Origin: Solirubrobacteraceae bacterium
GTDB taxonomy: Bacteria; Actinomycetota; Thermoleophilia; Solirubrobacterales; Solirubrobacteraceae
Reading direction: 5' to 3'
DNA: 64,000 nt
Assembly (NCBI GenBank): GCA_030690545.1
Contig: JAUYGN010000094.1
Coordinates: forward strand, 1 to 64,000
The notes beneath the pieces are model-generated. The model was not told the DNA's origin. It saw only the letters and a list, made by a program, of their open reading frames with translations, and made no database searches. The position numbers and the translations under genes are program-made. This document shows positions 32,898 to 64,000 of this stretch, in pieces (within the stretch, counting starts at the first letter, position 1; every line of letters starts with the position of its first letter).

Positions 32898-32915
32898 CTG
32901 GCCGCCCCGGCCGAT

Positions 32916-36109: not shown

Positions 36110-36702
36110 TCGGTGTACGGCGCGTCGGCCATCGGCAGCACCGGACCACCGACCTGAACCATCGGCAGCGACAGGCCCGCGGGCCCGTCGTCCTTCGCGT
36201 CGTCCAGACCGACGGCGCCCTCGACCTCGAGACCGAGCAGATCCGGAGCGGCAGCGTCGATCGCCTCACGCAACGCGTGCTCGAGCGTCGCGGCAGACGA
36301 GGGACATCCGTTGCAGCTGCCCTGCAGCTGCAGGCGCGCCACACCGTCCTGGACGCCCAGCAGCTCGACGTTCCCGCCATGGGAGGCGAGAAACGGTCGC
36401 ACGCTGTCGAGCGCTTGGGTGACGCGCTCCTGGAGCGGCACGGGGTACAGCCCGTGGATCAGCAGCAGGCTGGCGACGATGCCGTCGTCGAGCAGCGCGT
36501 CGCGGATCGGGAGTCCGGGCTCCCCGGCGTCCGCGAGGACGCCGAGGATCCGGTCCAGACCAGCTCCGTACAGCTCGAGAACCGCGCCGACGAGCTCCTG
36601 CACGCGCTGCTGCGCGACAGGATCGGCGATGTCGTCGAGCGAGCCCAGGAGCTCCTGGACCCGCTCGACCAGCTCTTCCGGAGCTTGGGCTTCAGTAGCC
36701 AC
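36085..36702 (-). CDS. NifU C-terminal-domain-like protein
   Basis: GTG start; SVRPFLASHGGNVELLGVQDGVARLQLQGSCNGCPSSAATLEHALREAI. Confidence 0.87.
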   Translation of the reverse strand: MATEAQAPEELVERVQELLGSLDDIADPVAQQRVQELVGAVLELYGAGLDRILGVLADAGEPGLPIRDALLDDGIVASLLLIHGLYPVPLQERVTQALDSVRPFLASHGGNVELLGVQDGVARLQLQGSCNGCPSSAATLEHALREAIDAAAPDLLGLEVEGAVGLDDAKDDGPAGLSLPMVQVGGPVLPMADAPYTECPSGVGT

Positions 36703-36710
36703 TTGGGCCC

Positions 36711-38492: not shown

Positions 38493-38510
38493 GTGTGTGT
38501 GCTCTCCTCT

Positions 38511-39575: not shown

Positions 39576-39594
39576 GTGAGCTCCTCCCTTTCGA

Positions 39595-40683
39595 CTAACA
39601 GATGCGCGGCAACGGATCGCCCACGAGCTGATCCATCACCCGCTTGCCTCCGAAGGCGGTCGCCATCAGCACCATGCCTTCGGGTTCGGTCTTGCATTCG
39701 CCGATCTCGGCGGCCTCTTCGCCGCCCGGCATTGACCGCAACGCGGCCAGCGCTGCGTCCGCCGCCTCGGGGGCGACGATCGCAACGAGCTTTCCCTCGT
39801 TTGCCACGTGCATCGGGTCGATCCCGAGGATCTCCGCGGCTCCCGCTACCGCCGGGTGCACTGGCACCGCGGCCTCGTTGATGACCATCGCGATTCGCGA
39901 TGCCCGTGCGAGCTCGTTGAGGACCGATGCGACGCCGCCGCGGGTCGCGTCGCGCAGGCAGCGCAGCGACGGACCGGCCTCGTCCAGCAGCTTGTCGACC
40001 ATCGGCCAAAGAGATTGGGTGTCGGACGTGATGTCCGCGTCGAGCTCGAACTCTCCGCGGGCGAGCATGATCGCCGTGCCGTGGTCGCCGATCCGTCCGG
40101 AGACGAGGATCTTGTCGCCCGGTGTCAGGGAGGACGGCGACAGGCTCGCGCGGTCGTCGAGGACGCCGAGCCCGGTCGTGCACATGTACATCTGGTCGCA
40201 GGCGCCGCGCTCGACGACCTTCGTGTCGCCGGCGACGATCGGCACGCCGGCCTCCACCGCCGCGGCCGCGATCGCCGCGACCTGCTCCTTGAGGACGTCG
40301 GCCGGCAGGCCCTCCTCGAGGATCAGCGACAGCGTCAGCGCGAGCGGCTTGGCGCCGGCCATCGCGAGGTCGTTGACCGTGCCGTTGACGGCGAGCTCGC
40401 CGATCGTGCCGCCCGGGAAGCTGATCGGGTTGACGACGAAGGAGTCCGTCGTCATCGCGACGTTGCCGCCGAGCACCGGCACCGTGCCGGCGTCGGCGAG
40501 CGCCTCGAGCGTGGCGTTGGCGAAGGCGGGAACGAGCAGGCCCTCGATGAGGCTGGCCGTCGCCTTGCCGCCGGCGCCGTGGGCCATCGTGATCTGCGTG
40601 TCGCGGAACTTCTGGCGCTTCGCGCGGGCGGTCTCGATGATGTTGAGCACCTTCTGCTCACGCTCTGAGACCTCGGAGGGCAC
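39595..40683 (-). CDS. hypE: Hydrogenase maturation protein HypE
   Basis: ITMAHGAGGKATASLIEGLLVPAF...DSFVVNPISFPGGTIGELAVNGTVNDLAM...ending PRIC. Confidence 0.95.
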   Translation of the reverse strand: MPSEVSEREQKVLNIIETARAKRQKFRDTQITMAHGAGGKATASLIEGLLVPAFANATLEALADAGTVPVLGGNVAMTTDSFVVNPISFPGGTIGELAVNGTVNDLAMAGAKPLALTLSLILEEGLPADVLKEQVAAIAAAAVEAGVPIVAGDTKVVERGACDQMYMCTTGLGVLDDRASLSPSSLTPGDKILVSGRIGDHGTAIMLARGEFELDADITSDTQSLWPMVDKLLDEAGPSLRCLRDATRGGVASVLNELARASRIAMVINEAAVPVHPAVAGAAEILGIDPMHVANEGKLVAIVAPEAADAALAALRSMPGGEEAAEIGECKTEPEGMVLMATAFGGKRVMDQLVGDPLPRIC

Positions 40684-41798
40684 TAGACGACCTCGCGCTC
40701 GCGGGCGAAGCGCCCGTAGTTGTAGTAGGCCGCACAGGCGCCCTCGCTGGACACCATGCACGTGCCGATCGGCCGCTCGGGCGTACAGCCGGAGCCGAAG
40801 ACCTTGCACTCCCAGGGCTTGATGACGCCCTTGAGGACCTCGCCGCACTGGCACGCCTTCGGGTCGGCGACGCGGATGCCGGGGACGCTGTACTGGATCT
40901 CGGCGTCCATGTCGGCGTAGGCCTCGGAGAGCTTCAGCCCGCTCTGCGAGATGAAGCCCATCCCGCGCCACTCGAAGTGCGGACGCAGCTCGAAGACCTC
41001 GGACATGACTTCCAGCGCGCGCGGGTTGCCGTCGTAGGGCACGACGCGCGCGTACTGGTTCTCGACCTCGCAGCGGCCCTCCTTGAGCTGCGTGAGGATC
41101 ATGTGGATCGCGTGCAGCACGTCGAGCGGCTCGAAGCCGGCGACGGAGATCGGCTTGCCGTACTCCGTCGGGATGAACTCGAACGGCCGCACGCCGACGA
41201 CCGTCGAGACGTGGCCCGGGCCGATGAACCCGTCCAGGCGCAGGTCGGGCGAGTCGAGCAGCGCGCGCAGCGGCGGCACGATCGTGACGTGGTTGCACAT
41301 GCAGAAGAAGTTCTTGACGCCTTCCGCCTTCGCCCGCTTGAGCGTCAGCGCCGTCGACGGTGCCGTCGTCTCGAAGCCGATCGCGAAGAAGACGACCGGG
41401 CGGTCGGGGTTCGCCTTGGCGATCCGCAGCGCATCCAGCGGCGAGTAGACCATCCGGATGTCGGCGCCCTCGGCCTTGGCGTCCAGCAGCGTGCCGTCGG
41501 AGCCGGGCACGCGCAGCATGTCGCCGAAGCAGGTGAAGATCACGTCGGGCTCGTGCGCGAGCGCAATGCCGTCGTCGACGCGGCCCATGGGGATCACGCA
41601 GACCGGGCAGCCGGGACCGTGGACGAGCTCGACGTTGGCGGGCAGCAGGTCGTCGATCCCGTACTTGTAGATCGAGTGGGTGTGGCCGCCGCAGACCTCC
41701 ATGAGCTTGTAGTGGCGGCCGGGCTCCACGAGGCCGAGGATCTCGCCCGCCAGCACCTGCCCGAGGGCAGGATCGCGGAACTCGTCGACATGCTTCAT
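40683..41798 (-). CDS. hypD: Hydrogenase maturation protein HypD
   Basis: LMEVCGGHTHSIYKYGIDDLLPANVELVHGPGCPVCVIP; GFETTAPSTA. Confidence 0.96.
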   Translation of the reverse strand: MKHVDEFRDPALGQVLAGEILGLVEPGRHYKLMEVCGGHTHSIYKYGIDDLLPANVELVHGPGCPVCVIPMGRVDDGIALAHEPDVIFTCFGDMLRVPGSDGTLLDAKAEGADIRMVYSPLDALRIAKANPDRPVVFFAIGFETTAPSTALTLKRAKAEGVKNFFCMCNHVTIVPPLRALLDSPDLRLDGFIGPGHVSTVVGVRPFEFIPTEYGKPISVAGFEPLDVLHAIHMILTQLKEGRCEVENQYARVVPYDGNPRALEVMSEVFELRPHFEWRGMGFISQSGLKLSEAYADMDAEIQYSVPGIRVADPKACQCGEVLKGVIKPWECKVFGSGCTPERPIGTCMVSSEGACAAYYNYGRFAREREVV

Positions 41799-42058
41799 TG
41801 CGGGGCCTCCTCGGTAAGCCTTGCGATCGCCGTGCCGGCGTGAACAAGGAGTCGGTCCCCCGGCGCCACCGGGGCGACTAGGTCTATCTCGACCGTCTCC
41901 GAGCTCCCGTCGTCATCAGCGCAGAGCGCGAGCCCTCTGCCTTCGTCCAGGCGCAGGACGGTCAGCGGGATGGCGACGTCGCCGCACGTGATGCAGCCCG
42001 TCGTGACATCGCAGGTCGGAGCCAGCGCAGCTGCTGCGTTGGCGATCAGGCGCGTCAT
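41795..42058 (-). CDS. HypC-like protein lacking the canonical N-terminal MC motif
   Basis: MTRLIANAAAALAPTCDVTTGCITCGDVAIPLTVLRLDEGRGLALCADDDGSSETVEIDLVAPVAPGDRLLVHAGTAIARL. Confidence 0.8.
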   Translation of the reverse strand: MTRLIANAAAALAPTCDVTTGCITCGDVAIPLTVLRLDEGRGLALCADDDGSSETVEIDLVAPVAPGDRLLVHAGTAIARLTEEAPQ

Positions 42059-42333
42059 TCGATGATGCTCGCCTTCAGCTCTTCGAGCTCGTTCTCGTAG
42101 TCCTCGCCCATGCTCTCGAGCATGCGGCGGGTCTCCAGCGCCTCGGCCTCGTCGACCTTCGACATCGCGAAGCCGACGTGGATGAGCACCCAGTCGCCGG
42201 GGCCGACGCCGACGCCGTCATCGTCGAGAAGCCCGATGTTGACGTTGCGCTGCACGCCCGCGACATCGACCTTCGCAAGACGGTTGCCCTCGTCTACGAC
42301 CTCAAGGATCCGACCAGGAATCGCCAAGCACAT
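42055..42333 (-). CDS. hypC: Hydrogenase assembly chaperone HypC
   Basis: MCLAIPGRILEVVDEGNRLAKVDVAGVQRNVNIGLLDDDGVGVGPGDWVLIHVGFAMSKVDEAEA. Confidence 0.95.
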   Translation of the reverse strand: MCLAIPGRILEVVDEGNRLAKVDVAGVQRNVNIGLLDDDGVGVGPGDWVLIHVGFAMSKVDEAEALETRRMLESMGEDYENELEELKASIIE

Positions 42334-44804: not shown

Positions 44805-45230
44805 TTACGCGTTGCCGACGTTCGCCGTGAACTGCTTGACGAGCCCGGTCAGCACGCCGACGACGGTGCCCTCGCCCATCGAACCGGCCTTGCCGCTCAC
44901 GTTCGCGACCGCGTTGACGGTGCCGGTGCCACCGCTGATGCTGATCGTGACGTCGCCGTTGGCGGCGCTCTGCCCGCCGGCCTCGGTCGTCTTGGCCTTG
45001 ATCTTGACGGTCTTGCTGCCGGGGTTCGAGGACTCGATCGTGACGGGGCCGACGAACTTCATGCCCATCGCGCCCATCTTGACGTCGATCTCGGCCTTGA
45101 CGGACTCCGGGCCGTCGGCGGACTTGACCTTGGCGCCGGGCACGCAGGGCACGAGCTTGTTCAGGTCGCTGATGATGCCCCAGGCGTGGTCGGGGTTGGA
45201 CACCGAAAACGTTTCGTTCAGGGTTGGCAT
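44805..45230 (-). CDS. coxG: CoxG / SRPBCC family protein
   Basis: MPTLNETFSVSNPDHAWGIISDLNKLVPCVPGAKVKSADG...IDVKMGAMGMKFVGPVTIE. Confidence 0.87.
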   Translation of the reverse strand: MPTLNETFSVSNPDHAWGIISDLNKLVPCVPGAKVKSADGPESVKAEIDVKMGAMGMKFVGPVTIESSNPGSKTVKIKAKTTEAGGQSAANGDVTISISGGTGTVNAVANVSGKAGSMGEGTVVGVLTGLVKQFTANVGNA

Positions 45231-46810: not shown

Positions 46811-48232
46811 TCATATGCCTGAGTTGGACCCAGGCGACGTATTGCCCTTGTAGGCGCCATATCCGCTGGGCATCCGGACATGCGCCTCCGTCGTGCCGGC
46901 GAACCCCCACGTCTCCTCCTCGGGCTCGTCGTCAAGCGTCGGGACCTTCCAACTCGCGAGCATCGGATCATGATCGCGCTCGGCGGCGATCGCATCGGCG
47001 ACCTCCTCCAAAGACTTCAGCGTGTGGCCGCTGACGAGGGCGTCGCAATGCGGCAGCGCAGCGACGAGGCCGCCGGCCTTGGGCGAGAAGCCCTGCGCCG
47101 CGACGCGGGGATTGACCCAGACGATCCGGTAGGCGAGGCGCGACAGCCGCTGCATCTCGCGGCCGACGAGCTCGGGGTCGCCGCGCTCCCAGCCATCGGA
47201 CAGGATCACGACGACGGAACCGCGCGCCATCCCGCGACGCCCGTAGCGGTCGTTGAACTCCTTCAGCGCATCGCCGATCCGCGTGCCGCTGGACCAGTCG
47301 GGCGCCGCCTCTGTCGCGCGTCGGATCGCCCGCTGCGGGTTACGCCCGGCAAGCTGCTTGGTGAGGCGAGTCAGGCGCGTGGCGAAGACGAACGCCTCGG
47401 CGTACGGGCCCGTCGCGCGGGCCGCGTGCAGGAACTGCAGGTACGCGCGCGCGTAGGGCTCCATCGAGCCCGAGATGTCGCACAGCAGCACGAGCCTGCG
47501 CGGATGAGAGCGGCGGCGCTTGCGCGCGAGCACGATCGGGTCGCCGCCGGTGTGCAGGCTCTTGCGCAGCGTGCGGCGCATGTCCATGTGCTCGCCGTGG
47601 CGCCCGCGGCGCTTGCGGCGCGTGACGCGCTCGGGGGTGGCGAGCTGCAGGCGAACCATGAGCTTGTACAGCAGGGCGAGCTCCTCGGAGCTCAGCGCCT
47701 GGAAGTTCTTCTGGCTGAGGGCCTCCTCCTCGCTTGCCTCCTGCAGCGGGACGAGCGTCTCCTTCTGGTCTTCGTCCTCGTCCTGCTCGTCCTCATCGTC
47801 GCCGTCGCCGGCGTTGATGCTCATCGCGTCCTGGCCGCCCTCGCGCTCCATGACGTTCTGGTCGCTCATCTCGTCGGGCGTCTCGCTGTCGATCCGATCG
47901 ACCGGCGCGTCCTCGAGCTCGACGTCGTAGTCGTCGGGGTTGATCGCCCGCTTGCGGGTTCCGAACACCTCGCCGAAGATGCGGTCGAACGCCGCCACCT
48001 GCTGAAAGCCGGTGACGAAGATCGCCCGCGTCGTGCAGTACAGCCGACGACGCGAGACCGGCTTGGTGAGCTTCAGCGCACGCGTGTACTGCTCGGTCTG
48101 CGACGGCGTGACCGGCACGCCCGCCTCGTGCAGCCGCTGACTGAACGCGCTCGCGAGCCCCGGCAGGTCGACGTCGAAGTCGACGACCTTGAACTCGGGG
48201 ACCGGGTCCGCGCCGTTGGACGTCTTGGCCAC
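46811..48232 (-). CDS. coxE: VWA-domain protein CoxE
   Basis: RRLVLLCDISGSMEPYARAYLQFLHAA (MIDAS DxSxS); central acidic region. Confidence 0.88.
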   Translation of the reverse strand: MAKTSNGADPVPEFKVVDFDVDLPGLASAFSQRLHEAGVPVTPSQTEQYTRALKLTKPVSRRRLYCTTRAIFVTGFQQVAAFDRIFGEVFGTRKRAINPDDYDVELEDAPVDRIDSETPDEMSDQNVMEREGGQDAMSINAGDGDDEDEQDEDEDQKETLVPLQEASEEEALSQKNFQALSSEELALLYKLMVRLQLATPERVTRRKRRGRHGEHMDMRRTLRKSLHTGGDPIVLARKRRRSHPRRLVLLCDISGSMEPYARAYLQFLHAARATGPYAEAFVFATRLTRLTKQLAGRNPQRAIRRATEAAPDWSSGTRIGDALKEFNDRYGRRGMARGSVVVILSDGWERGDPELVGREMQRLSRLAYRIVWVNPRVAAQGFSPKAGGLVAALPHCDALVSGHTLKSLEEVADAIAAERDHDPMLASWKVPTLDDEPEEETWGFAGTTEAHVRMPSGYGAYKGNTSPGSNSGI

Positions 48233-48281
48233 TAGCCGTCGTTCCCGTGCGGACCGTGCGTATGTGCGGAGGCGGCCACCC

Positions 48282-49202
48282 CTACCGCTCCTCGATCAGC
48301 TGCTCCAGGCCGGCCGCGCGAACGACGTCCTGATCCTCGCTGTACTTCAGCACCGAGCCGAGCGTGCGGTCGGCGGACTCGACGTCGAGATGATCGACGC
48401 CGAGCAGGTCCAAGGCGGAGACCCAGTCGATCGCCTCGGCGATGCCGGGCGGCTTCTGGATGTCAGACGCGCGCATGCGCGAGACGGCATCGGCGACCTG
48501 GACCGCGAGGATCGCCGAGGCGCCCTTGACGCGGCGGCGGACGATGTCGACCTCGCGTTGCGGGTCCGGGTAGTCGATCCACTGGTACAGGCAGCGGCGC
48601 TTGACGGCATCGTGCAGGTCGCGCGTGCGGTTGGAGGTGAGGATGACGATCGGCGGGTGCGTCGCGGTGATCGTCCCGATCTCGGGAATCGTGACGGTCG
48701 CCTCGGCGAGCAGCTCGAGCAGGAAGGCCTCGAAGTCGTCGTCGGCACGGTCGAGCTCGTCGATCAGCAGGACCGCGGGCCGCGGGCCCTTGTGCTCGAG
48801 CGCCTCCAGCAGCGGGCGGCGGATCAGGTAGTCGGGTCCGAACAGGCCCTTCTCGTCGAGATCCTCGCCCTTGGCGTCGGCGATCCGGATGCTCAGCAGC
48901 TGGCGCGGATAGTTCCACTCGTAGAGCGCCTCGGAGGCGTCGATGCCCTCGTAGCACTGCAGGCGGATCAGCGGCGTGTTCATCACCTGCGCGAGCGCCT
49001 TGGCAAGCTCGGTCTTGCCGACGCCGGCCTCGCCCTCGAGCAGTAGCGGCTGCGGCAGTCGCAGGGCCAGGAAGGCCGAGGTCGCGAGGCCCTCGTCGGC
49101 GAGGTAGTCGACGTCTCCCAGCAGCTGCCCGAGCTTGTCCACGCTCGGGATCAGGCGGCGCATCTCTTCTTCCAGCTCGTCGCTTCGCTTCAGTCGGCTC
49201 AT
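48282..49202 (-). CDS. coxD: MoxR-type AAA+ ATPase CoxD
   Basis: LLLEGEAGVGKTELAKALAQVMNTPLIRLQCYEGIDASEALYEWNYPRQLL...AVLLIDELDRADDDFEAFLLELL. Confidence 0.92.
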   Translation of the reverse strand: MSRLKRSDELEEEMRRLIPSVDKLGQLLGDVDYLADEGLATSAFLALRLPQPLLLEGEAGVGKTELAKALAQVMNTPLIRLQCYEGIDASEALYEWNYPRQLLSIRIADAKGEDLDEKGLFGPDYLIRRPLLEALEHKGPRPAVLLIDELDRADDDFEAFLLELLAEATVTIPEIGTITATHPPIVILTSNRTRDLHDAVKRRCLYQWIDYPDPQREVDIVRRRVKGASAILAVQVADAVSRMRASDIQKPPGIAEAIDWVSALDLLGVDHLDVESADRTLGSVLKYSEDQDVVRAAGLEQLIEER

Positions 49203-49819: not shown

Positions 49820-50903
49820 CCAGGTGCTCCCGCTGGTACTTCGTCTTGCAGCCGTCGCAGCAGAAGTAGACCGTCTCGCCGTCGTGCTCGACATGCGGGG
49901 TGTCCGCGGAGGCGATCACCGTCATGCCGCAGATCGGGTCGACGGCGGTCGTCGCGGTGGCCGGTGCGGCTGGCGGCGTGTCGCCGGCGAGGCTCGCTGC
50001 GTACTCCGTCTTGCAGGCCTCGCGGCAGAAGTAGATCGTCTCGCCGTCGTGCTCGAGCTGCGGCGTGTCAGGCGCCATCGTGACGGTCATGCCGCAGATC
50101 GGATCGACGGCGAACGTCGGCGGTGCCTCGGCGCTCGGGGAACGCAGCGGCGGCGTGTAGGCATCGCCGTAGCGGACCTCGATCAGCCGCGCGAGGATCG
50201 TCAGCGCGACCTCGGGCGGAGTGCGGGCGCCGATGTCGATGCCGGCCGGGTAGTCGACGCGCGCGAGCTGCTGCTCGGGCACCCCGGCGTCGCGCAGCTC
50301 CTCGATCAGGGCGGCACCGCGCTTCGGGCTGACGACGAGTCCGACGTAGGGAAGCTCGGCCTCGAGGCCGGCGCGGATCGCCTCGAGCTCACCCTTGCCG
50401 TGTGCGGCGATGACGATGCCGAGGTCACCCTCCTGCACGTTGGCCGCGTTGTCGCCGACCGCGGCGATGTCCAGGTCGAACTGGGGACCGAGCTGCTCCA
50501 GCGCGGCCGCGATCGGCTTCGAACCGACGACGTTCACGCGAGGGGTCGGCAATGTCGGCTCCAGGAAGATCTCGATTGCGCCACCGGAGAGGCAGCTGTT
50601 GAGGACCGTCACCGCGCCGTCCTCGTCGGCGTCCTGCCGGCCTGCGACCTCTTCCTCCGTCGGCAGGATCCGCAGGAGGACGGGCTCGCCGGACTTCATC
50701 GCCGTCCAGGCGAACAGCCGGACGCTGTGCTCGGCGCAGATGCCGCCGACGAAGCCTTCGATATTGCCATCGCTCGTGATGAGCGCGACGTCTCCCGCGT
50801 GGGCGCTCGTCGGACGCTGGGCGCGTACGACGGTCGCCGTTGCGAAGGCCGCGCCCTGCGCGGCGAGCTCCTCAGCTCGCCGCGCCAGCGCGTCATTTCT
50901 CAC
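49800..50903 (-). CDS. XdhC/CoxF-like protein fused to two C-terminal YHS domains
   Basis: GTG start; CoxI/XdhC domain GNIEGFVGGICAEHSVRL; YHS repeats FAVDPICGMTVTMAPDTPQLEHDGETIYFCREACKTEYA and TAVDPICGMTVIASADTPHVEHDGETVYFCCDGCKTKYQ. Confidence 0.9.
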   Translation of the reverse strand: MRNDALARRAEELAAQGAAFATATVVRAQRPTSAHAGDVALITSDGNIEGFVGGICAEHSVRLFAWTAMKSGEPVLLRILPTEEEVAGRQDADEDGAVTVLNSCLSGGAIEIFLEPTLPTPRVNVVGSKPIAAALEQLGPQFDLDIAAVGDNAANVQEGDLGIVIAAHGKGELEAIRAGLEAELPYVGLVVSPKRGAALIEELRDAGVPEQQLARVDYPAGIDIGARTPPEVALTILARLIEVRYGDAYTPPLRSPSAEAPPTFAVDPICGMTVTMAPDTPQLEHDGETIYFCREACKTEYAASLAGDTPPAAPATATTAVDPICGMTVIASADTPHVEHDGETVYFCCDGCKTKYQREHLDAVPAG

Positions 50904-53326
50904 TGCGGGGGCTGCGCGTTTCCGTTCATCGCGGCCCACACGCGGGCGGGGAAGCACGGGATGTCCATGTACTTGATCCCCTTGGCGTGGTAGAGCGCGT
51001 CGACGACCGCGTTGGCGATGCACGGCGGGGACCCCACGCAGGGGGACTCGCCGACACCCTTGGCGCCGATCGGATGGTGCGGACACGGCGTGACCGTCTC
51101 GCCGAGCTCGAAGCCGTGCTCCGGGCACTCGAGCGCCGTCGGCAACAGGTAGTCCATGAACGATGCGTTCATGCAGTTGCCCGACTCGTCGAACGAGATG
51201 ATCTCCATCAGCGCCTGGCCGATGCCCTCGACGAGTCCGCCGTGGATCTGGCCCTCGACGACCAGCGGGTTGATCCGCACGCCGCAGTCATCGACCGCGA
51301 TGAAGCGGCGCATGTGGACCTTGCCGGTGCCGGGATCGACGTCGACCACCGCGATGTACGCCCCGAAGGGGTACGTCAGGTTGGGCGGGTCGTACACGGC
51401 GTTGGCGTCCAGGCCGCCCTCGAGCCCCTCGGGGAGGTTCGTGGCGCTGTAGGCGTACTCCGCGATCCGCTCGATCGTGGCGCCGCGCTCCGGATCGCCG
51501 CGCACGAACCAGCGACCCTTCTCCCACGCCAGGTCCTCGGCGCGGCTCTCGAGCATCAGCGCGGCGAACTGGCGAGCCTTGTCGCGCACCTTGCGCGACA
51601 CGACGGCCACGGCGCCGCCGGAGACCGGCGTCGACCGGCTGCCGTACGTGCCCAGGCCGTACGGCGTCTTGTCCGTGTCGCCATGGCGAACCATGATGTG
51701 GTTCGGGGAGATGCCGAGCTCCTCGGCGACGATCTGCGCGAACGTCGTCTCGTGGCCCTGCCCCTGCGTCTGGGCGGAGATCGACACGACGGCCTTGCCG
51801 GACGGATGGACGCGCAGCTCGGCGCCGTCGTTCATCGCCAGGCCGAGGATGTCCATGTGGCGGCGCGGACCGGCGCCGACCCCCTCCGTGAAGAAGGAGA
51901 TGCCGATGCCCATCAACTCGCCCTTGGCGAGCTTCTCCTGTTGTTCTCGTCGTAGGCCGTCGTAGTCCGCCATCTCCAGGGCGAGCTTCATCGCCTTGTG
52001 GTAGTCGCCCGAGTCGTAGACCCAGCCGGTCGCCGACTCGTAGGGGAACTGGTCGGAGCGGATGAAGCTGCGCATGCGCAGATCGACCGGATCGGTCCGC
52101 ATCTCCATCGCCAGCGCGTCGACCATCCGCTCGACGAGGTAGACGGCCTCGGTGATGCGGAAGGAGCAGCGGTAGGCGACGCCGCCCGGTGCCTTGTTCG
52201 TGTACACGGCCTTGACCTGGCAGTGCGCGCCCTGGAGGTCGTAGGACCCCGTGACGATGTGGAAGAACCCGGCCGGGAACTTCGTCGCCTGAGCGGTCGA
52301 GTCGAACGCGCCGTGGTCGGCGATCGCGTCGACGCGCAGGCCGGTGATCTTGCCGCCCTTGGAGCACATCTCGCTGTACATGAGGTAGTCGCGAGCGAAC
52401 CCGGTCGAGGCGAGGTTCTCCGAGCGGTCCTCGATCCACTTGACGGGAGCGCCGGCCACGATCGAACCGGCGATCGCGCAGACGTAGCCCGGGTAGACCG
52501 GCACCTTGTTGCCGAACCCGCCGCCGATGTCGTTGCAGAGGATGCGGATGTTCTGCTCCGGCAGACCCGCCACCTGCGCGTACACCGTGCGGTGCGCGTG
52601 CGGCGCCTGGTTGCCGTTGTAGATGTTCAGCTGACCGGTCGCCGGGTTCATGTCGGCGACCATGCCACACGTCTCCATCGGACACGGATGGCTGCGCGGG
52701 TCGAGCACCGTGCGGATGGCGACGACGTCGGCCTCGGCGAACACGCGGTCGCATGTCGCCTTGTCGCCGGCCTCCCACAGCGGGCTGGCGAGGTTGTCGA
52801 CCTGGCCGACCTTGTCGTCGCGGATCAGCGGGGCGTCGGGATCGAGCGCCTTGCGGCAGTTGACGACCGCCGGCAGCACGTCGTAGTCGACCTCGATCAG
52901 CTGCAGTGCGTCCTGCGCCGCGTAGGCATCGGTCGCGATGACGAACGCCACCTCCTGGAGGTGGAAGCGGACCTTGTCTCCGGCGAGCACGGCCTGCGTG
53001 TCGTAGGAGATCGTCGGCATCCAGGCCAGACCGAGCGTCTCGAGATCCTTCGCGATGACGACCGCGGCGACCTTCGGGTGCGCGAGCGCAGCCGACGTGT
53101 CGATCGAGTTGATCGTCGCGTGGGCGTACGGCGAGCGCAGGATGGCGCTGTGCAGCATGCCGGGCAGGCGGACGTCGTCCATGTAGTCGCCGAGGCCGCG
53201 GATGAAGCGCGCGTCCTCCTTGCGCTTCATGTGGCCGAAGCCGATCGGCGCGTCGGTGACCTCGCCCCAGGTGCCGCCGCCGGCCCAGCCGGGGTTGCGG
53301 CCGGGAGTTGTCTCAATGGTTGCCAT
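50900..53326 (-). CDS. coxL: Aerobic carbon monoxide dehydrogenase large subunit, form I
   Basis: Form I active-site loop VAYRCSFR (coded at 52157-52177) and Moco-binding motifs; ends GAKGVGESPCVG... Confidence 0.95.
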   Translation of the reverse strand: MATIETTPGRNPGWAGGGTWGEVTDAPIGFGHMKRKEDARFIRGLGDYMDDVRLPGMLHSAILRSPYAHATINSIDTSAALAHPKVAAVVIAKDLETLGLAWMPTISYDTQAVLAGDKVRFHLQEVAFVIATDAYAAQDALQLIEVDYDVLPAVVNCRKALDPDAPLIRDDKVGQVDNLASPLWEAGDKATCDRVFAEADVVAIRTVLDPRSHPCPMETCGMVADMNPATGQLNIYNGNQAPHAHRTVYAQVAGLPEQNIRILCNDIGGGFGNKVPVYPGYVCAIAGSIVAGAPVKWIEDRSENLASTGFARDYLMYSEMCSKGGKITGLRVDAIADHGAFDSTAQATKFPAGFFHIVTGSYDLQGAHCQVKAVYTNKAPGGVAYRCSFRITEAVYLVERMVDALAMEMRTDPVDLRMRSFIRSDQFPYESATGWVYDSGDYHKAMKLALEMADYDGLRREQQEKLAKGELMGIGISFFTEGVGAGPRRHMDILGLAMNDGAELRVHPSGKAVVSISAQTQGQGHETTFAQIVAEELGISPNHIMVRHGDTDKTPYGLGTYGSRSTPVSGGAVAVVSRKVRDKARQFAALMLESRAEDLAWEKGRWFVRGDPERGATIERIAEYAYSATNLPEGLEGGLDANAVYDPPNLTYPFGAYIAVVDVDPGTGKVHMRRFIAVDDCGVRINPLVVEGQIHGGLVEGIGQALMEIISFDESGNCMNASFMDYLLPTALECPEHGFELGETVTPCPHHPIGAKGVGESPCVGSPPCIANAVVDALYHAKGIKYMDIPCFPARVWAAMNGNAQPPQ

Positions 53327-53328
53327 AG

Positions 53329-53856
<528 letters not shown>

Positions 53857-53866
53857 GGGTCTCCTC

Positions 53867-54748
53867 CTAGCTGACGGCCGTGGCGGCCGCGCGGCTGAGA
53901 GCGCGTGTGGTCAGGACGCCGGCGACGTGGCGCTTGTAGTCGGCCGGACCGCGACCGTCGCTGTTGGGCGAGCAGTCGGCTGCGGCCATCTGACCGCACT
54001 GGGCGAACAGATCCTCCGACGGCGCCTGACCGACGAGCGCCTTCTCGGCGCGCTCGATGTGCAGCGTGGTCGGACCGACGGCGCTACAGGCGACGCCCGC
54101 GAACGTGATGCGGCCGCCCTCGATCGCCAGCGCGGCGGAGGCGGCGACGATCGCGAAGTCTCCGGCGCGACGCTCGACCTTCTCGTGGGCGCCACCGAAG
54201 CCCGAATGAGTCGGGATCCGGACCTCGATCAGCATCTCCGTCGGCTGAACGGAGGTCATGTAGGGACCGAGATGGAACTCCTCCATGCCGACGACGCGCT
54301 CCGCGCCACCGGGCCCGCGCAGCACGGCCTCGCCCTTGAGGGCGACGACGACGCCGGAGAGGTCCTCGGCCGGATCGGACTGGCAGAGCGATCCGCCCAT
54401 CGTTCCGCGATTGCGCACGACCGGGTCGGCGAGGACGGCCTCGGCCTCCCGGAAGATGTGCGGGAACACCTGGGAGAGCAGGTCGGACTCGAGCATGTTG
54501 ACGTGACGCGTGAGCGCCCCGATGCGAATCTCGTTGCCCTCTTGACGGATGTAGTTCAGCTCCGACTCAAGCGGGTTGATGTCGATCACGTGACCGGGGT
54601 TGGCGAGGCGCAGCTTCATCATCGGGATGAGGCTGTACCCGCCCGCCAGGATGCGCGCGTTCCCGCCCAGCGCTTGCAACTGCGCTATGGCGTCGTCGAC
54701 GCTCGTGGCCCGCGAGTACTCGCAGGGCGCGGGGGTCTGCATTGCCAA
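53867..54748 (-). CDS. coxM: Carbon monoxide dehydrogenase medium FAD-binding subunit
   Basis: ARILAGGYSLIPMMKLRLANPGHVIDINPL (AGGYS/TIGG-type FAD motif) and NRGTMGGSLCQSDPAEDL. Confidence 0.94.
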   Translation of the reverse strand: MAMQTPAPCEYSRATSVDDAIAQLQALGGNARILAGGYSLIPMMKLRLANPGHVIDINPLESELNYIRQEGNEIRIGALTRHVNMLESDLLSQVFPHIFREAEAVLADPVVRNRGTMGGSLCQSDPAEDLSGVVVALKGEAVLRGPGGAERVVGMEEFHLGPYMTSVQPTEMLIEVRIPTHSGFGGAHEKVERRAGDFAIVAASAALAIEGGRITFAGVACSAVGPTTLHIERAEKALVGQAPSEDLFAQCGQMAAADCSPNSDGRGPADYKRHVAGVLTTRALSRAAATAVS

Positions 54749-57888: not shown

Positions 57889-58326
57889 ATGGGAAACAAG
57901 AGCCTCGCGGCCGGGGCGTCTCTGCTGATCGGGGCGGCATACGTCGGGGTCGGCATCATCGGATTCTTCATCACCGGGTTCGGGAACTTCCTGGCGGACA
58001 CCGACGACACGCTGCTGTTCGGGTTCGCCAGCATCAATCCGCTGCACAACCTGGTGCACATCGTCGTCGGCGCGTTCCTGATCGCGATGACGCGGTTCTC
58101 GACGCCGACGACCGAAGGCGCGCTGATGGGCGTCGGCCTGTTCTACATCGTCGCCTTCGTGATCGGCGTGGTCGCGCCGGACAACCTGACGATCATCTCG
58201 ATGAACGGCGCCGGCGACGGCGAGAACTTCGTGCATATCTTCACGGGCGTGACGGCACTGACCGCCGGGCTCATCTCGGTCGCACAGTCCGAGGCCGCGG
58301 CGAAGAAGAGCGGCATCCGAAGCTAG
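57889..58326 (+). CDS. DUF4383-type four-TM membrane protein
   Basis: MGNKSLAAGASLLIGAAYVGVGIIGFFITGF...INPLHNLVHIVVGAFLIAM. Confidence 0.75.
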   Translation: MGNKSLAAGASLLIGAAYVGVGIIGFFITGFGNFLADTDDTLLFGFASINPLHNLVHIVVGAFLIAMTRFSTPTTEGALMGVGLFYIVAFVIGVVAPDNLTIISMNGAGDGENFVHIFTGVTALTAGLISVAQSEAAAKKSGIRS

Positions 58327-58945: not shown

Positions 58946-59479
58946 TCAGCTGTGGCTGTGGCTGCCGAAGGCGAGCGCCAGCAGGCTGGCCGACGCGAGC
59001 ATCATGCCCAACCGCACCGCGTGGTTTCCGCGCAGCCAGCCGAACAGCCGGCCTGCGCGGCCGGACGGCCGCAGCCACGCGCCGACGAGCGCTGCCAGCG
59101 CGAGCTGGTCGAGCGTCGCGACGGTGTCGGCGACCGCGATCGGCTCCGGCTCCCAGGCCCAGGGCCCGATCGGCATGCCAGCCGTCCGAGACATCAGCCA
59201 GATCGCCGTGACCGCGAGGCTGCCGTACAGCGCCACGCGCAGCAGCCGTTCGCCGGCGCGGCCGCGATACACCGCGTAGGCCCAGCCGAGCTGCGCGTAC
59301 GCGACGACGCCGAAGAACACGCCGAACGCCCACCAGTGCGGGGCGTGGTCGATGCCCGCCTTGATGTGGATGACACCGGCGGCCGCGGCGAGGCCGGCGG
59401 CGACGACGAGCGTCTGGGCCTGCGGCGGCCGATCGCCGCGCGTCGCAGGCCCGGTCCGCGGTGACGGGGCCGTGATCAC
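58946..59479 (-). CDS. Hypothetical membrane protein (177 aa)
   Basis: GTG start overlapping upstream TGA; AQTLVVAAGLAAAAGVIHIKAGIDHAPHWWAFGVFFGVVAYAQLGWA. Confidence 0.65.
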   Translation of the reverse strand: MITAPSPRTGPATRGDRPPQAQTLVVAAGLAAAAGVIHIKAGIDHAPHWWAFGVFFGVVAYAQLGWAYAVYRGRAGERLLRVALYGSLAVTAIWLMSRTAGMPIGPWAWEPEPIAVADTVATLDQLALAALVGAWLRPSGRAGRLFGWLRGNHAVRLGMMLASASLLALAFGSHSHS

Positions 59480-60060
59480 GGCGGCGTGTGCCGGAACGAC
59501 TCGACGATCGCGCCGAACGTCGGCAGCAACGACGGCATCAGCGTGGCAGGCACCGTCTGCATGACCATCTGGATGAGACGCTGTCGCTTGAAGAGGAAGT
59601 AGTGGATGTGGGCACCCTCGGCGTCGCCTTCGGAACGGTAGGCGTATTCGTAGCGCCATCCCGGCAGGCCACCGACCGTGACGGCCTCAGGCTCGTTCAC
59701 TGAGGTGATGCGGTCGTCAGCCTTCAGCAGATCATCGGTCAGCGGACGGACGACCGGCAGCGTCTCAGCGGTCACCTGAGCGAGGTCGGACTTGCGGACG
59801 CTGATGCTGACCGACGCCGTCTGGTCGGGCGTTGCCACGAGGATCCGGACGGCCTGGTCCTTCGATGCCCGGCGCTGCCAACCGGCGGGATACGTGATCG
59901 CGACGTCCGTCAGCGTGTCGCGGAACGTCGTCGTCGTAGGCTCGGTGGGCGAGGGCTCCGGAACGATGCTGCGCCCCACGACCCCGCCGACCACAAGGGC
60001 GAGGAGGGCGGCGAGGGCGAGTGCCCCCACAACGCCCCCTACCAGCCACTTGCGATTCAC
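59476..60060 (-). CDS. Hypothetical membrane-anchored extracytoplasmic protein
   Basis: GTG start VNRKWLVGGVVGALALAALLALVVGGVVGRSIVPEPSPTEPTTTTFRDTLTDVAITYPAGWQRR... Confidence 0.65.
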   Translation of the reverse strand: MNRKWLVGGVVGALALAALLALVVGGVVGRSIVPEPSPTEPTTTTFRDTLTDVAITYPAGWQRRASKDQAVRILVATPDQTASVSISVRKSDLAQVTAETLPVVRPLTDDLLKADDRITSVNEPEAVTVGGLPGWRYEYAYRSEGDAEGAHIHYFLFKRQRLIQMVMQTVPATLMPSLLPTFGAIVESFRHTPP

Positions 60061-60073
60061 AATGCACCAGCGC

Positions 60074-60104
60074 AAAAAAGAGCCCGGCCGAAGCCGGACT
60101 CTTT
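60074..60104 (-). terminator. Rho-independent terminator of the right-edge membrane-protein operon
   Basis: Minus strand AAAGAGTCCGGC-TTCG-GCCGGGCTCTTTTTT: 12-bp stem, UUCG tetraloop, U tract. Confidence 0.88.
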
Positions 60105-60112
60105 CTCGATGT

Positions 60113-60868
60113 TCAGCGCTCCCAGGGCCTGAGGCCCTTGCCTGAGAGCCGCCCGAGCTGATCCTCCGGCGGTGCCGGGGCCGGTGGCGCTGCGCCCGGC
60201 GCAGCCCCGCTCGGTGCCTGCGGCGCCGCCGGCGGTGCCGGCGGTGCCGGTGGCGGGGTCTCGACCTTCCGACCCTGCGCGTCCCGCGGACGCGTACCCT
60301 CGGTCAGCACCGGCTCGTACGGGCTGTGCACGGGATCCTTGCCGATGACCGGCGCCTTCGGGATGTTCTTCGTCGGATCGCGACGATCTGGCGGGGCCGG
60401 GTACAGCTTCGCGACCTCCGACGTCGAGTACTTCGGGTCGCGAACCGCGGCGCCCTTGGCGTGCGCGACGCCGATCGGCGCCCCGCGACCGAGGCCCGCG
60501 AGAATGCCCACGCCGCGCGTGTACACGGTGCCCACGTTGACGACCTTGCCGCTGCGGTTGACGCGCTTGAGGAACTTCGCGCCCTCGCCCGGGAAGAGCG
60601 ACTCGACGAGGCCCGCTGAGTCCGGGCCCGCCTTCTTGAGCATGAGGTTCTCGAGCGCGTCGCGCGTGACGACGAGGTTCGCGTTGATGTCGTCGACGAC
60701 GGGGTTGACCGGGTTCGTCTTGGTGACGATCTGGCCGACCAGCGGAAGCACGACGGACAGTCCCGCGTTGATCTTGAACAGCTGCAGGATCGTCGCGATC
60801 AGGTAAATCGCCAGCTCGGCGACGATCACGGCGATCAGCAGGATGATGATGGCTACCTGAATCTCCAC
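60113..60868 (-). CDS. Hypothetical bitopic membrane protein with Pro/Ala-rich C-terminus
   Basis: MEIQVAIIILLIAVIVAELAIYLIATILQLFKINAG...PPPAPPAPPAAPQAPSGAAPGAAPPAPAPP. Confidence 0.65.
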   Translation of the reverse strand: MEIQVAIIILLIAVIVAELAIYLIATILQLFKINAGLSVVLPLVGQIVTKTNPVNPVVDDINANLVVTRDALENLMLKKAGPDSAGLVESLFPGEGAKFLKRVNRSGKVVNVGTVYTRGVGILAGLGRGAPIGVAHAKGAAVRDPKYSTSEVAKLYPAPPDRRDPTKNIPKAPVIGKDPVHSPYEPVLTEGTRPRDAQGRKVETPPPAPPAPPAAPQAPSGAAPGAAPPAPAPPEDQLGRLSGKGLRPWER

Positions 60869-60877
60869 CGAAGCCCC

Positions 60878-61138
60878 CTAGTAGTCCGGAAGGGCGGCAT
60901 TCAGCGAGCCGCCGTAGTCGAGGACCGAGTTCTTGATCGACCCGATGTACCCCTGCGTCGTGAGCAGGACGGCCACGGCGTCGAGATCCTTCGACGCCGC
61001 CGCAGCCACGCCGGCGATCGCATCGATCTTCGCCGGAATGCTCGTCGCGGCCGCGAGGACGCGCTTGAGCAGCTGCATGAGCAGCAGGACGACGACGGCC
61101 AGGACGATGACCATGATCCAAAGTGCTGCGTCAGCCAT
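60878..61138 (-). CDS. Small bitopic membrane protein (86 aa)
   Basis: MADAALWIMVIVLAVVVLLLMQLLKRVLAAATSIPAKIDAIAGVAAAASKDLDAVAVLLTTQGYIGSIKN. Confidence 0.65.
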   Translation of the reverse strand: MADAALWIMVIVLAVVVLLLMQLLKRVLAAATSIPAKIDAIAGVAAAASKDLDAVAVLLTTQGYIGSIKNSVLDYGGSLNAALPDY

Positions 61139-61141
61139 GGA

Positions 61142-61420
61142 TCAGCCCCCCTGTGCCTTGCGGACGACGAGGCGGGCCTTGCCCGCGATCACCGGCAGCG
61201 TGTCGACGATGATCTTCAGTGGGCCGTTGACGTCGGCGACGAGCCTGTCCAGCGGGCGCAGATGCTGCGACTCCACCGTCGCAAGCGCGCCGCCCAGCGT
61301 CCCCAAGCCCTCGGAGATGATCTCCAAGCGCTTGGCGACCATCGTCAGGGCCACCGTGAGGATGACGACCAGCAACGCTGGCTCGACCATGCTCAGGATG
61401 ATCATGAGTTCGGTGCTCAT
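61142..61420 (-). CDS. Small bitopic membrane protein (92 aa)
   Basis: MSTELMIILSMVEPALLVVILTVALTMVAKRLEIISEGLGTLGGALATVESQHLRPLDRLVADVNGPLKIIVD. Confidence 0.65.
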   Translation of the reverse strand: MSTELMIILSMVEPALLVVILTVALTMVAKRLEIISEGLGTLGGALATVESQHLRPLDRLVADVNGPLKIIVDTLPVIAGKARLVVRKAQGG

Positions 61421-61722
61421 ACCGTCTCCCCCGCCGCGGTGTAGCCATCCGTCAGTGCGTTCATGTAGCCGTCCTGGATGATCGCCTCTTCGATGATCAG
61501 GTTCAGGACCGGCGGCGTGGCGGCAAGCTTCGGGATGTTCGCCGTCTGCGAGGCCACGATGCCTGCCGTCTCCAGCAGGCTCGCGACGCTCGCCTGGATG
61601 TCCTTCACGAGGCTCAGCAGGAGCATCATGAGGATGATCACGACGACGAGCACGACTGCGCCCATGCCGAGAACGATCTGCCACGCGGCATGTGTGTCCG
61701 GTGCTGCGATCACATCGATCAT
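61417..61722 (-). CDS. Small bitopic membrane protein (101 aa)
   Basis: MIDVIAAPDTHAAWQIVLGMGAVVLVVVIILMMLLLSLVKDIQASVASLLETAGIVASQTANIPKL. Confidence 0.65.
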   Translation of the reverse strand: MIDVIAAPDTHAAWQIVLGMGAVVLVVVIILMMLLLSLVKDIQASVASLLETAGIVASQTANIPKLAATPPVLNLIIEEAIIQDGYMNALTDGYTAAGETV

Positions 61723-61979
61723 TTGCCCACCGCCACCTTCCGCAGCGCCCGGGCCATGTGGAGGATCCGGACTGCTGAGTCGTTGACCCGGTCGACGCCG
61801 TCGGACAGGCTCGCGGACTGAGCCCTGACGGTGTCGACGCCTGCATCTGCCTCTTGGGCCTGGTCAGCGATCCGGGCTGCCATCGTCAGGATGACGGCCA
61901 CGATGATGACCACCACCACGATGATGAAAAAGGACAGCCCAAGGCCGATGTACCAGTCTGTGTAACTAGTTTCGTCCAT
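61719..61979 (-). CDS. Small bitopic membrane protein (86 aa)
   Basis: MDETSYTDWYIGLGLSFFIIVVVVIIVAVILTMAARIADQAQEADAGVDTVRAQSASLSDGVDRV. Confidence 0.65.
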   Translation of the reverse strand: MDETSYTDWYIGLGLSFFIIVVVVIIVAVILTMAARIADQAQEADAGVDTVRAQSASLSDGVDRVNDSAVRILHMARALRKVAVGK

Positions 61980-61981
61980 GG

Positions 61982-62758
61982 CTACCTCCTGCACGCGTTG
62001 CCGCGGGGCTTGACGACGTTACCCAGGAGACCGCCCAGGTCGACTGCGGCGCTGCAGTCGATCGAGTTGGCATGGCCGACGATGTGGGACCCGAAGGGAC
62101 CACCTCGGCCGTCCTGACCAACGTTCGCATCGATCCCGATGAAGTCCTGCTTGATCGCCTTGGCGGTCGTATCGATCTCCGTTGCGAGACCGACGATCGT
62201 CGCGACCGTTCGATCGATGTTGTTGACCCGGCTGAGAATCGAGCCACCGCTCGAGAGGATGTTCCGAACGCTGCCGTTGATCGATTGAGCAGAGTTCAGG
62301 ATCGTCCTGCCCTTGCTCCCGATCGACTTGACGCTCGTATTGATCTCACTCGCGTTGGCGAAGATCTGATCGACGGTCCCGCCGATCTCCAGCACGGTGC
62401 CGTTGATCTCGCCGGCCACCGAGTTGATCTCTCCGACCTTGCCGAGAATGGACTTCAGCTTGGGATCGATTCCCTTGCTGGCGACCTCAAGAGTCCGGGC
62501 GAAGTGTCCGGACAGCGGCGCCGCCGCTGCCCGGATCTTCGTCGAGGTCTCCGAGATCGTCTTCGCCTCCGCGATGAAGCCGGCGTCCGTGCCGATCTCA
62601 TCCACGTTTGGCTTGATGACTGCCACCGAGCGGTCGATCGATCGTGCGGCCAGCAGCGTCCCGGTGAGGAACATCACCGAGAGCAGCGCCCACGCGATCA
62701 GGATCACGAGCACGACGGGCGACATGCCCCGTGCTCCGCTGAGGATGTCACGCAACAT
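61982..62758 (-). CDS. TM-anchored heptad-repeat protein with C-terminal Cys...Cys cap (paralogue A)
   Basis: SVAGEIN/GTVLEIG/GTVDQIF/ANASEIN/TSVKSIG/SKGRTIL/NSAQSIN/GSVRNIL...; ends IDCSAAVDLGGLLGNVVKPRGNACRR. Confidence 0.7.
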   Translation of the reverse strand: MLRDILSGARGMSPVVLVILIAWALLSVMFLTGTLLAARSIDRSVAVIKPNVDEIGTDAGFIAEAKTISETSTKIRAAAAPLSGHFARTLEVASKGIDPKLKSILGKVGEINSVAGEINGTVLEIGGTVDQIFANASEINTSVKSIGSKGRTILNSAQSINGSVRNILSSGGSILSRVNNIDRTVATIVGLATEIDTTAKAIKQDFIGIDANVGQDGRGGPFGSHIVGHANSIDCSAAVDLGGLLGNVVKPRGNACRR

Positions 62759-62764
62759 GGCTAA

Positions 62765-63505
62765 TCAGCAATTCGTCTCGCCGCCGAGCAGGCCGACGAG
62801 AGAGGCGACAAGGGACTCGCAGATGCTCTGCAGATGCCGCGACGCGTCGGTCAGACCAGCGTCGATCTTGTTCGTGTCGGACAGAATTCCGCTCAGACCC
62901 TCGCCGCTGTTGATGCTCGCGACGAGCGGCGGAACGGCGCCAACGCCCTGGCTGGCCGGCGAATGCGCCGCCCGCAGGACCTGGTTGATCGTCCGAACGC
63001 GGTTGTTGACCGTGACGAGCACGCCCGACGTGTCACGCAGGGAGCCGCGAATCGTCACGAGGACGTTCGTCGTGCCCTTCAGCGAGTTCGACGTGTCGAC
63101 GAGCGATCCATCGATGGTCTGCAGGTCACCGGTCGTGTCGACGAGCGAGGACGACGTGCTCAGCAGCGAGCTCGACGTGGTCTTCAGGGCGTTGTCGACG
63201 CGCCCCGTCGAACCGTTGATCGAGGTCAGGCTGTTGAGGATCGAGACGCCCTGGCCCGGAATGGGCTTGAGAGCCTCGTCGATCGCCGTCAGGTTGCCGT
63301 TGATCTCCCGGATGTAGCCCGGGAGCGGATCGGCATCGCTGCCGACTTCCACCAGCGTCTCGTCGGTCGTCCCGAGTGCCTTGTCGATCGAGTTCAGGGC
63401 GCTCGTGATGCCGGACAGGAATCCGATCACCACGACCACGACCAGAATCAGGATCGTGCCGAAGATCCATGTCCAGCGGAGATCTGTTGCTATGCCACGC
63501 TGCAC
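62765..63505 (-). CDS. TM-anchored heptad-repeat protein with C-terminal Cys...Cys cap (paralogue B)
   Basis: SLLSTSS/SLVDTTG/DLQTIDG/SLVDTSN/SLKGTTN/VLVTIRG/SLRDTSG/VLVTVNN; ends ICESLVASLVGLLGGETNC. Confidence 0.7.
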   Translation of the reverse strand: MQRGIATDLRWTWIFGTILILVVVVVIGFLSGITSALNSIDKALGTTDETLVEVGSDADPLPGYIREINGNLTAIDEALKPIPGQGVSILNSLTSINGSTGRVDNALKTTSSSLLSTSSSLVDTTGDLQTIDGSLVDTSNSLKGTTNVLVTIRGSLRDTSGVLVTVNNRVRTINQVLRAAHSPASQGVGAVPPLVASINSGEGLSGILSDTNKIDAGLTDASRHLQSICESLVASLVGLLGGETNC

Positions 63506-63554
63506 GGGGTCCTCCTCGAAATCACGGCGTTACTGATCGTGCGGCTTGACGGAC

Positions 63555-64000
63555 TCATGGCGCGATGCCCCTGCAGTCCTGGCGGTTGGCGTTGCCGCCA
63601 CCGATGTTGAGCTTGTTGTCGATGCAGCCCGCGGTGTCCAGGATCGCGACCGAGTCCCCGAGGATGTTGCCCGAGTCGGTCTTGATGCCCCTGGCGATGC
63701 CGAGCGTCTCGGTCAGGCCACCCACGATCACGCTTGCGTCGCGATCGATGATCTGGGCGATCCCGAGGATGCCCGAACCGGGACCGGCGATCGTGCGGAT
63801 GCTCGTCGCGGTGCGGTTGATCGTGCCCGCCACGTCGTTGATGCCGCCGGCGACCCCGTCGATCGACTTGGCCGTCGTGTTGATCTCACCCGCCGTGTTG
63901 TTGATGCTGCGAGCAGCCCCGTTGATCGTCGTGGCACTCGTGTTGATCGTGCCGGCGGTCGAGAGGATCGTGCTTGCAAGGCTGTCGATCGACGTCGCGT
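63555..64000 (-). CDS. Heptad-repeat protein with C-terminal Cys...Cys cap (paralogue C, N-terminus beyond window)
   Basis: Frame open to the edge: STAGTIN/TSATTIN/GAARSIN/NTAGEIN/TTAKSID/GVAGGIN/DVAGTIN/RTATSIR; ends CIDNKLNIGGGNANRQDCRGIAP. Confidence 0.7.
   Translation of the reverse strand, partial: ATSIDSLASTILSTAGTINTSATTINGAARSINNTAGEINTTAKSIDGVAGGINDVAGTINRTATSIRTIAGPGSGILGIAQIIDRDASVIVGGLTETLGIARGIKTDSGNILGDSVAILDTAGCIDNKLNIGGGNANRQDCRGIAP

What the first reader, a model, noticed from the sequence alone, without database searches (positions are those of the whole stretch)
60113..64000. Operon of bitopic membrane proteins with strict heptad repeats and a C-terminal Cys...Cys cap: best candidate for an undescribed system
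At least eight consecutive minus-strand genes, closely spaced or overlapping, end at a clear terminator (60074-60104). Each gene whose N-terminus is in the window starts with one very hydrophobic helix; the N-terminus of the last lies outside. The last three encoded in the window (61982-62758, 62765-63505, 63555-64000) have exact 7-residue repeats of the form xxAxxI[N/D] or SLxxTxx and end in a short Cys...Cys segment (CSAAVDLGGLLGNVVKPRGNAC; CESLVASLVGLLGGETNC; CIDNKLNIGGGNANRQDC). I recognise no family. Inference: a membrane-anchored fibrous or coiled-coil assembly, possibly disulfide-capped, with the smaller TM proteins as partners.
Basis: partly seen in the sequence, partly recalled or inferred. 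Interest (0 to 1): 0.82.

Follow-up and report, generated by a model that had tools for sequence, protein, structure and literature searches.

The report
Membrane cassette for trace-gas oxidation enzymes
Eight related membrane-anchored helical proteins, encoded in one operon of a soil actinobacterium, belong to a gene family that almost always sits beside the enzymes that burn atmospheric carbon monoxide and hydrogen, and they probably tie those dissolved enzymes to the membrane where their electrons are used.

Summary
The operon is real: eight minus-strand genes (60113 to contig base 64364, 364 bases beyond the window), a strong terminator, one N-terminal membrane helix per protein, and three long proteins with significant heptad repeats and an invariant C-terminal Cys pair. 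It is not an isolated unknown. The window is a trace-gas island with form I Mo-CO dehydrogenase and group 1h [NiFe]-hydrogenase. The five small proteins are homologous to the cassette that, in another actinobacterial family, lies between the small and large hydrogenase genes, an arrangement published as HylTM1-5 of group 1l [NiFe]-hydrogenase (PMC9561532). New here: the same cassette is built into CO-dehydrogenase operons in two separate lineages with different gene orders. The window's copy belongs to the first, which includes cultured Solirubrobacter. The three heptad proteins are elongated paralogues of the small ones. Of 74 cassette loci, 58 have a CODH or hydrogenase subunit gene in the fetched stretch; 7 have no partner. 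Best explanation: a cytoplasm-facing, membrane-anchored helical platform that docks these cytosolic dehydrogenases at the membrane, probably giving them access to menaquinone. Docking is inferred from gene order, topology and co-phylogeny; nothing was tested biochemically.

The parts
63555..64000 (-). HEP-A: TM plus consecutive xxAxxIN-type heptads plus C-terminal Cys pair; gene continues to contig base 64364 (269 aa)
62765..63505 (-). HEP-B: TM plus SLxxTxx heptads plus C-terminal Cys pair (246 aa)
61982..62758 (-). HEP-C: TM plus heptads with 17 consecutive Ile at one register plus C-terminal Cys pair (258 aa)
61719..61979 (-). D: small single-TM protein, HylTM-like (86 aa)
61417..61722 (-). 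E: small single-TM protein, HylTM-like (101 aa), with the C-terminal QDGYMNALTDG motif invariant in the 13 aligned members of CODH-linked clade 1
61142..61420 (-). F: small single-TM protein, HylTM-like (92 aa)
60878..61138 (-). G: small single-TM protein, HylTM-like (86 aa)
60113..60868 (-). H: single-TM protein (251 aa) with a conserved cytoplasmic extension (YTRGxLxLAxLGRxAPI) found in CODH clade 1
60071..60104 (-). Intrinsic terminator ending the operon
59476..60075 (-). PsbP/DcrB-like membrane-anchored protein, conserved neighbour of the heptad triple
57889..58326 (+). DUF4383 membrane protein, frequent neighbour of the heptad triple
50900..54742 (-). coxM-coxS-coxL, form I Mo-CO dehydrogenase (AYRCSFR motif)
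44805..45230 (-). CoxG-like protein (named by own recognition of the sequence; no NCBIfam model matched)
46811..49202 (-). AAA ATPase and VWA protein (MadB/MadC-like, in the place of CoxD/CoxE)
36711..39575 (-). [quoted passage not shown]
28266..42333 (-). Hydrogenase maturation and accessory genes (HypF, HypB, HypA, HypE, HypD, HypC and others) around the hydrogenase

Best explanation
The operon encodes a heteromeric membrane platform for cytosolic trace-gas dehydrogenases. Five short proteins (D-H) each place one helix in the membrane and an amphipathic helix in the cytoplasm. Three elongated paralogues (HEP-A, B, C) add long coiled-coil rods capped by a conserved Cys pair. The bundle holds form I Mo-CO dehydrogenase, and in other lineages a group 1l-type [NiFe]-hydrogenase, at the membrane, where electrons can pass to menaquinone. 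Functionally this would be analogous to HucM, which ties group 2a hydrogenase to the membrane. Shown here: homology of the cassette across CODH- and hydrogenase-linked loci, its operon position, the partner-specific clades, the N-out/C-in charge signature of D-H, and paralogy within the eight. Inferred: physical complex, docking and quinone access.
For: Cassette directly upstream of coxMSL on the same strand, in places overlapping coxM by 23 nt or lying between coxM(S) and coxMSL. In family f23, cassette between hylS and hylL, with 12-113 nt to hylS and 23-33 nt to hylL. In f21, f33 and f70, cassette directly after coxG of a coxMSL operon. 58 of 74 loci have an enzyme subunit gene in the fetched stretch, and 7 more are explained by truncation or accessory genes. 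The cassette tree separates two CODH clades (support 100 each) among hydrogenase-linked ones; CoxL proteins with a cassette form two clades (0.999 and 1.0). E C-termini are clade-specific: QDGYMNALTDG, EGLxHHLFLxRVL or REELLRHEKLL. K+R is higher on the C-terminal flank of the membrane helix in 90-98% of each of the five families D-H (235 proteins). HucM precedent: PMC10017518. HylTM1-5 precedent: PMC9561532.
Against: Many CODH clusters (L193-L206) lack the cassette, so it is not essential for the enzyme. Clusters with it also keep coxG, so it is not a CoxG replacement. In the window the operon is separate from coxMSL (6.8 kb away, terminator between) and also near a group 1h hydrogenase. Seven loci have no such partner (L051, L092, L163, L166, L167, L180, L189). 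Quinone binding, complex formation and stoichiometry are untested. The HEP-C model is not usable (pLDDT 38).
Confidence: 0.55

Rival explanations
1. The eight proteins are a membrane-bound assembly or maturation factor for the metalloenzymes (cofactor insertion or folding at the membrane) rather than a permanent part of the working enzyme.
For: The cassette travels with maturation genes: HypC/D/E/F, CooC-like ATPases, AAA/VWA pair, XdhC and CoxG. Two outlying loci lie beside trigger factor, ClpP and ClpX.
Against: Insertion between hylS and hylL and direct coupling to coxM point to a structural role. Mo-Cu and Ni-Fe cofactors need different chemistry, yet the same cassette serves both. No catalytic motif is visible.
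Confidence: 0.18
2. The proteins organise CODH, hydrogenase and the respiratory chain into a membrane patch or fibre (spatial scaffold), without touching electron flow.
For: Long heptad rods and heteromeric paralogues suit a scaffold; PDB profile hits are generic trimeric or chemoreceptor coiled coils.
Against: Most cassettes occur without the HEP rods (HEP-B in 7 of 249 class genomes against 27 with the cassette). Partner-specific C-terminal motifs suggest direct contact.
Confidence: 0.12
3. One reading: an extracytoplasmic, disulfide-capped fibrous assembly unrelated to the enzymes.
For: The C-terminal Cys pair is invariant, and HEP-B has more positive charge before its membrane helix.
Against: HEP-A and HEP-C carry the positive charge after the helix, and all three are paralogues of C-in proteins. 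Among the loci read, complete HEP triples were found only in or near hydrogenase or CODH clusters; one further pair of HEP-B hits, G412:C2, was not examined.
Confidence: 0.07
4. Passenger genes: the operon rides in a mobile trace-gas island and has no functional tie to the enzymes.
For: Some CODH and hydrogenase clusters lack it, and a few loci are isolated.
Against: Different gene orders in different lineages all keep it next to the enzymes, including inside hylS-hylL.
Confidence: 0.05

Closest known systems
HylTM1-5 of group 1l [NiFe]-hydrogenase clusters (PMC9561532, citing Ortiz et al. 2021)
   Same: Five short predicted single-TM proteins next to a trace-gas dehydrogenase. Homologous profiles: the f23 loci hylS-D-E-F-G-F'-hylL match the published arrangement.
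   Different: In the window the cassette is CODH-type by sequence and tree, is not between hydrogenase subunits, has an extended H protein, and is preceded by three elongated heptad paralogues.
HucM stalk of group 2a hydrogenase Huc (PMC10017518)
   Same: Works like it in the proposed model: a helical membrane-associated element joined to a cytosolic trace-gas enzyme.
   Different: HucM is one peripheral protein that forms a tetramer; here there are eight bitopic proteins. No sequence relationship was found or tested directly.
CoxG, proposed membrane anchor of Mo-CODH (PMC6794299)
   Same: Same pathway and the same proposed job of linking CODH to the membrane.
   Different: CoxG is a different protein that is also present in the cassette-bearing clusters.
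Trimeric autotransporter stalks and chemoreceptor coiled coils (PDB 2wpr, 2ch7)
   Same: Heptad periodicity of the HEP rods.
   Different: Generic coiled-coil similarity only, with no shared domains or context.

Membership tests
HylTM1-5 (group 1l hydrogenase TM cassette) | Five short single-TM proteins encoded consecutively | tested here: met
   D-H, (H is long, 251 aa, in this clade)
HylTM1-5 (group 1l hydrogenase TM cassette) | Sequence homology to the cassette lying between hylS and hylL | tested here: met
   Profiles built without f23 rows match the f23 loci: D 4e-11 to 1e-16, E 4e-21 to 9e-23; one tree. F, G and H matches there are weaker and partly cross-assigned
HylTM1-5 (group 1l hydrogenase TM cassette) | Position between hydrogenase small and large subunit genes | tested here: not met
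   The window cassette is 6.8 kb from coxL and 20.5 kb from hhyS, and hhyS-hhyL are adjacent
HylTM1-5 (group 1l hydrogenase TM cassette) | A group 1l hydrogenase in the genome | tested here: inconclusive
   G000 has only the group 1h enzyme and one on C111 resembling group 2a; subgroup assignment by HydDB was not possible
Mce/MlaD proteins | MlaD/MCE domain | tested here: not met
   Only sub-threshold hits: TIGR00996 12.4 bits, E 0.064, cut-off 140.5 bits
Methyl-accepting chemotaxis proteins | MCP signalling domain above cut-off | tested here: not met
   PF00015 at 16.3 bits against 34.6
HucM | Oligomeric amphipathic coiled-coil tube that binds menaquinone | not testable with these tools
   Needs structure or biochemistry

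The most novel reading that the evidence does not exclude
HEP-A, B and C together with D-H form one hetero-oligomeric cytoplasm-facing stalk that delivers menaquinone (or, through the six distal cysteines, electrons) to both CO dehydrogenase and hydrogenase. It would be a shared electron-entry hub for two atmospheric gases, evolved independently of HucM.
Probability: 0.2. Interest if true: 0.85.

Novelty: new variant of a known kind. Interest (0 to 1): 0.62.

Why it matters
How cytosolic form I CO dehydrogenases and high-affinity hydrogenases hand electrons to membrane quinones is an open question for the bacteria that consume much of the atmosphere's CO and H2. A cassette built into CODH operons in two lineages and into hydrogenase operons in others is a concrete candidate. 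It occurs in cultured Solirubrobacter species (S. soli DSM 22325, S. taibaiensis, S. phytolaccae), so it can be tested.

Tried and rejected
Known-family searches of all eight proteins in NCBIfam and PHROGs, and of the eight plus the downstream PsbP-like protein in Pfam: nothing convincing, and for Pfam and NCBIfam nothing above a curated cut-off; weak MCP, laminin, baseplate-hub and ZorA hits read as coiled-coil bias. PDB profile searches with HEP-C, E and H: generic coiled coils or nothing meaningful. Mce hypothesis: no MCE domain and no YrbE or ABC partner in the operon. A plasmid search with hylL found only hydrogenases at 40-43% identity. Literature: only one held paper uses 'HylTM'; the original PNAS paper is not held, so priority there could not be read.
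Full report
The observation. The eight genes, their spacing, the terminator, the N-terminal membrane helices, the heptads in the three long proteins and the Cys pairs are all in the sequence. The operon begins just outside the window: the first gene starts at contig base 64364 by comparison with relatives, and the next gene upstream, on the other strand, looks like an alpha/beta-hydrolase from its sequence (not tested). Heptad periodicity is far beyond shuffles in the three long proteins but absent in the two smaller proteins tested, E and H. In 27 close orthologues the two C-terminal cysteines are invariant and the only ones; 15 distant orthologues keep the pair, one with two extra cysteines.

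The neighbourhood. The window is a trace-gas oxidation island. It holds a [NiFe]-hydrogenase whose large subunit matches the Cupriavidus necator hydrogenase 5aa5, a group 1h enzyme according to PMC9561532 (E 9e-279), hyp genes, a form I CO dehydrogenase (TIGR02416 at 1188 bits; best PDB match 8uem; AYRCSFR motif), CoxG-like, AAA/VWA and XdhC-like genes, MoaA and MoaC.

Relatives. Profiles of four of the small proteins (alignments A1-A4) and a local D alignment were made, and the E profile was searched without reference to context. In the class sample, 27 of 249 genomes carry E; in the phylum sample, 36 of 398. I read the surroundings of 74 cassette loci, window included; a few of these came from the relatives search and not from the two samples. 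In 58 a CoxL, HylS/L or HhyS/L gene lies in the fetched stretch, in most cases within 2 kb and at most 6.8 kb for the nearest one. In 7 more the partner is indicated by accessory or partner genes or lies just outside a cut stretch (L039, L041, L042, L053, L054, L088, L179). L094 and L093 have a hydrogenase about 16 and 41 kb away on the same contig. Seven have none. With about 30 CoxL and roughly 100 hydrogenase large-subunit genes in 249 genomes of about 3 Mb, I estimate that a random site would lie this close in well under 1% of cases.

Gene orders. Thermoleophilia CODH type: D-E-F-G-H directly before coxM-S-L, sometimes sandwiched as coxM(-S)-D-E-F-G-H-coxM-S-L, including Solirubrobacter isolates. 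Families f21, f33 and f70: coxM-S-L-XdhC-coxG-G-H-D-E-F. Family f46: coxG-G-H-D-E-F followed by HEP-A-B-C. Family f23: hylS-D-E-F-G-F'-hylL. Others: divergent from hylS as D-G-E-F, or near hylSL with HEP-A-B-C.

Trees. In the concatenated cassette tree the window copy sits in CODH clade 1 (support 100). CODH clade 2 with some partnerless loci is separate (support 100), and hydrogenase-linked copies lie between them. The rooting is midpoint only, so 'two recruitments' is the simplest reading, not proof. CoxL proteins that carry a cassette also form two clades (FastTree support 0.999 and 1.0), and the cassette-free CoxLs of the same class fall outside them (L098_3038 is a second, non-adjacent CoxL of a cassette locus, and L207 has its cassette cut by the contig end). 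The C-terminus of E is clade-specific, and H has a conserved extension in CODH clade 1.

Paralogy and topology. Profile-profile comparison links the families: E-G 96%, D-E 95%, D-G 94%, F-H 97%, F-HEP-B 95%, G-HEP-C 93%, G-HEP-A 92%, D-HEP-A 90%; reversed-sequence controls for these pairs stay below 10%. HEP-A/HEP-C give 99.9% against 56-73% reversed, a warning that heptads alone score. Other pairs, such as E-F, show no link. So the operon is largely one expanded family, in two subgroups (D, E, G, HEP-A, HEP-C and F, H, HEP-B). K+R counts are higher after the membrane helix in 90-98% of sequences of each family D-H, which predicts the C-terminus inside; HEP-A and HEP-C agree, HEP-B does not. 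Orientation of the rods is therefore probable, not settled.

Prior knowledge. [quoted passage not shown] The f23 loci match that. I found no held paper describing the cassette in CODH operons or the heptad triple, but the library is partial and the PNAS paper was not held. Filing: a HylTM-like cassette by homology, failing the positional feature; hence a new variant of a known kind.

Mechanism. M. smegmatis CODH is described as primarily cytosolic (PMC6794299), group 1h enzymes lack a known membrane subunit (own knowledge), and HucM shows that a helical membrane-associated stalk can bring menaquinone to such an enzyme (PMC10017518). The cassette's position, C-in topology and partner-specific tails fit docking. 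Quinone conduction by the HEP rods and a redox or metal role of the Cys caps are speculation.

Noticed in passing
window 46206-46655 (-): A 149-aa stand-alone protein with a partial molybdopterin-binding domain (PF20256), conserved downstream of the VWA gene in many Thermoleophilia CODH clusters; a CoxL-like fragment kept as its own gene.
   Followed up: partly
G000 contig C111, L220:6779-9395: A second [NiFe]-hydrogenase in the same genome, beginning MTALDLFVSPLGRVEG, which resembles group 2a Huc; subgroup not tested.
   Followed up: partly
window 33545-36702 (-): NifU-domain protein, DUF5947, DUF6084 and an unnamed 385-aa protein follow the group 1h hydrogenase and recur in the same order in G001 and G006 (L208, L209).
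   Followed up: no
L092 (G006:C48) and L189 (G524:C9): Divergent cassette copies near ClpX and a valyl-type tRNA synthetase (trigger factor seen in L092, ClpP in L189); in L189 also upstream of an Mrp-type Na+/H+ antiporter operon.
   Followed up: partly
L166, L167, L180: Copies without enzyme genes but close to CODH clade 2 in the tree; L166 carries the clade-2 tail motif and lies next to a DsbH-like thioredoxin protein and a penicillin amidase.
   Followed up: partly
L105 and L108/L109: Cassette contigs binned as Thermomicrobiales and Frankiaceae MAGs are 86-94% identical to the window type and look like binning errors.
   Followed up: no
window 42626-42856 and 43193-43453 (+): Two small proteins between HypC and the XdhC gene without any Pfam match.
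   Followed up: no
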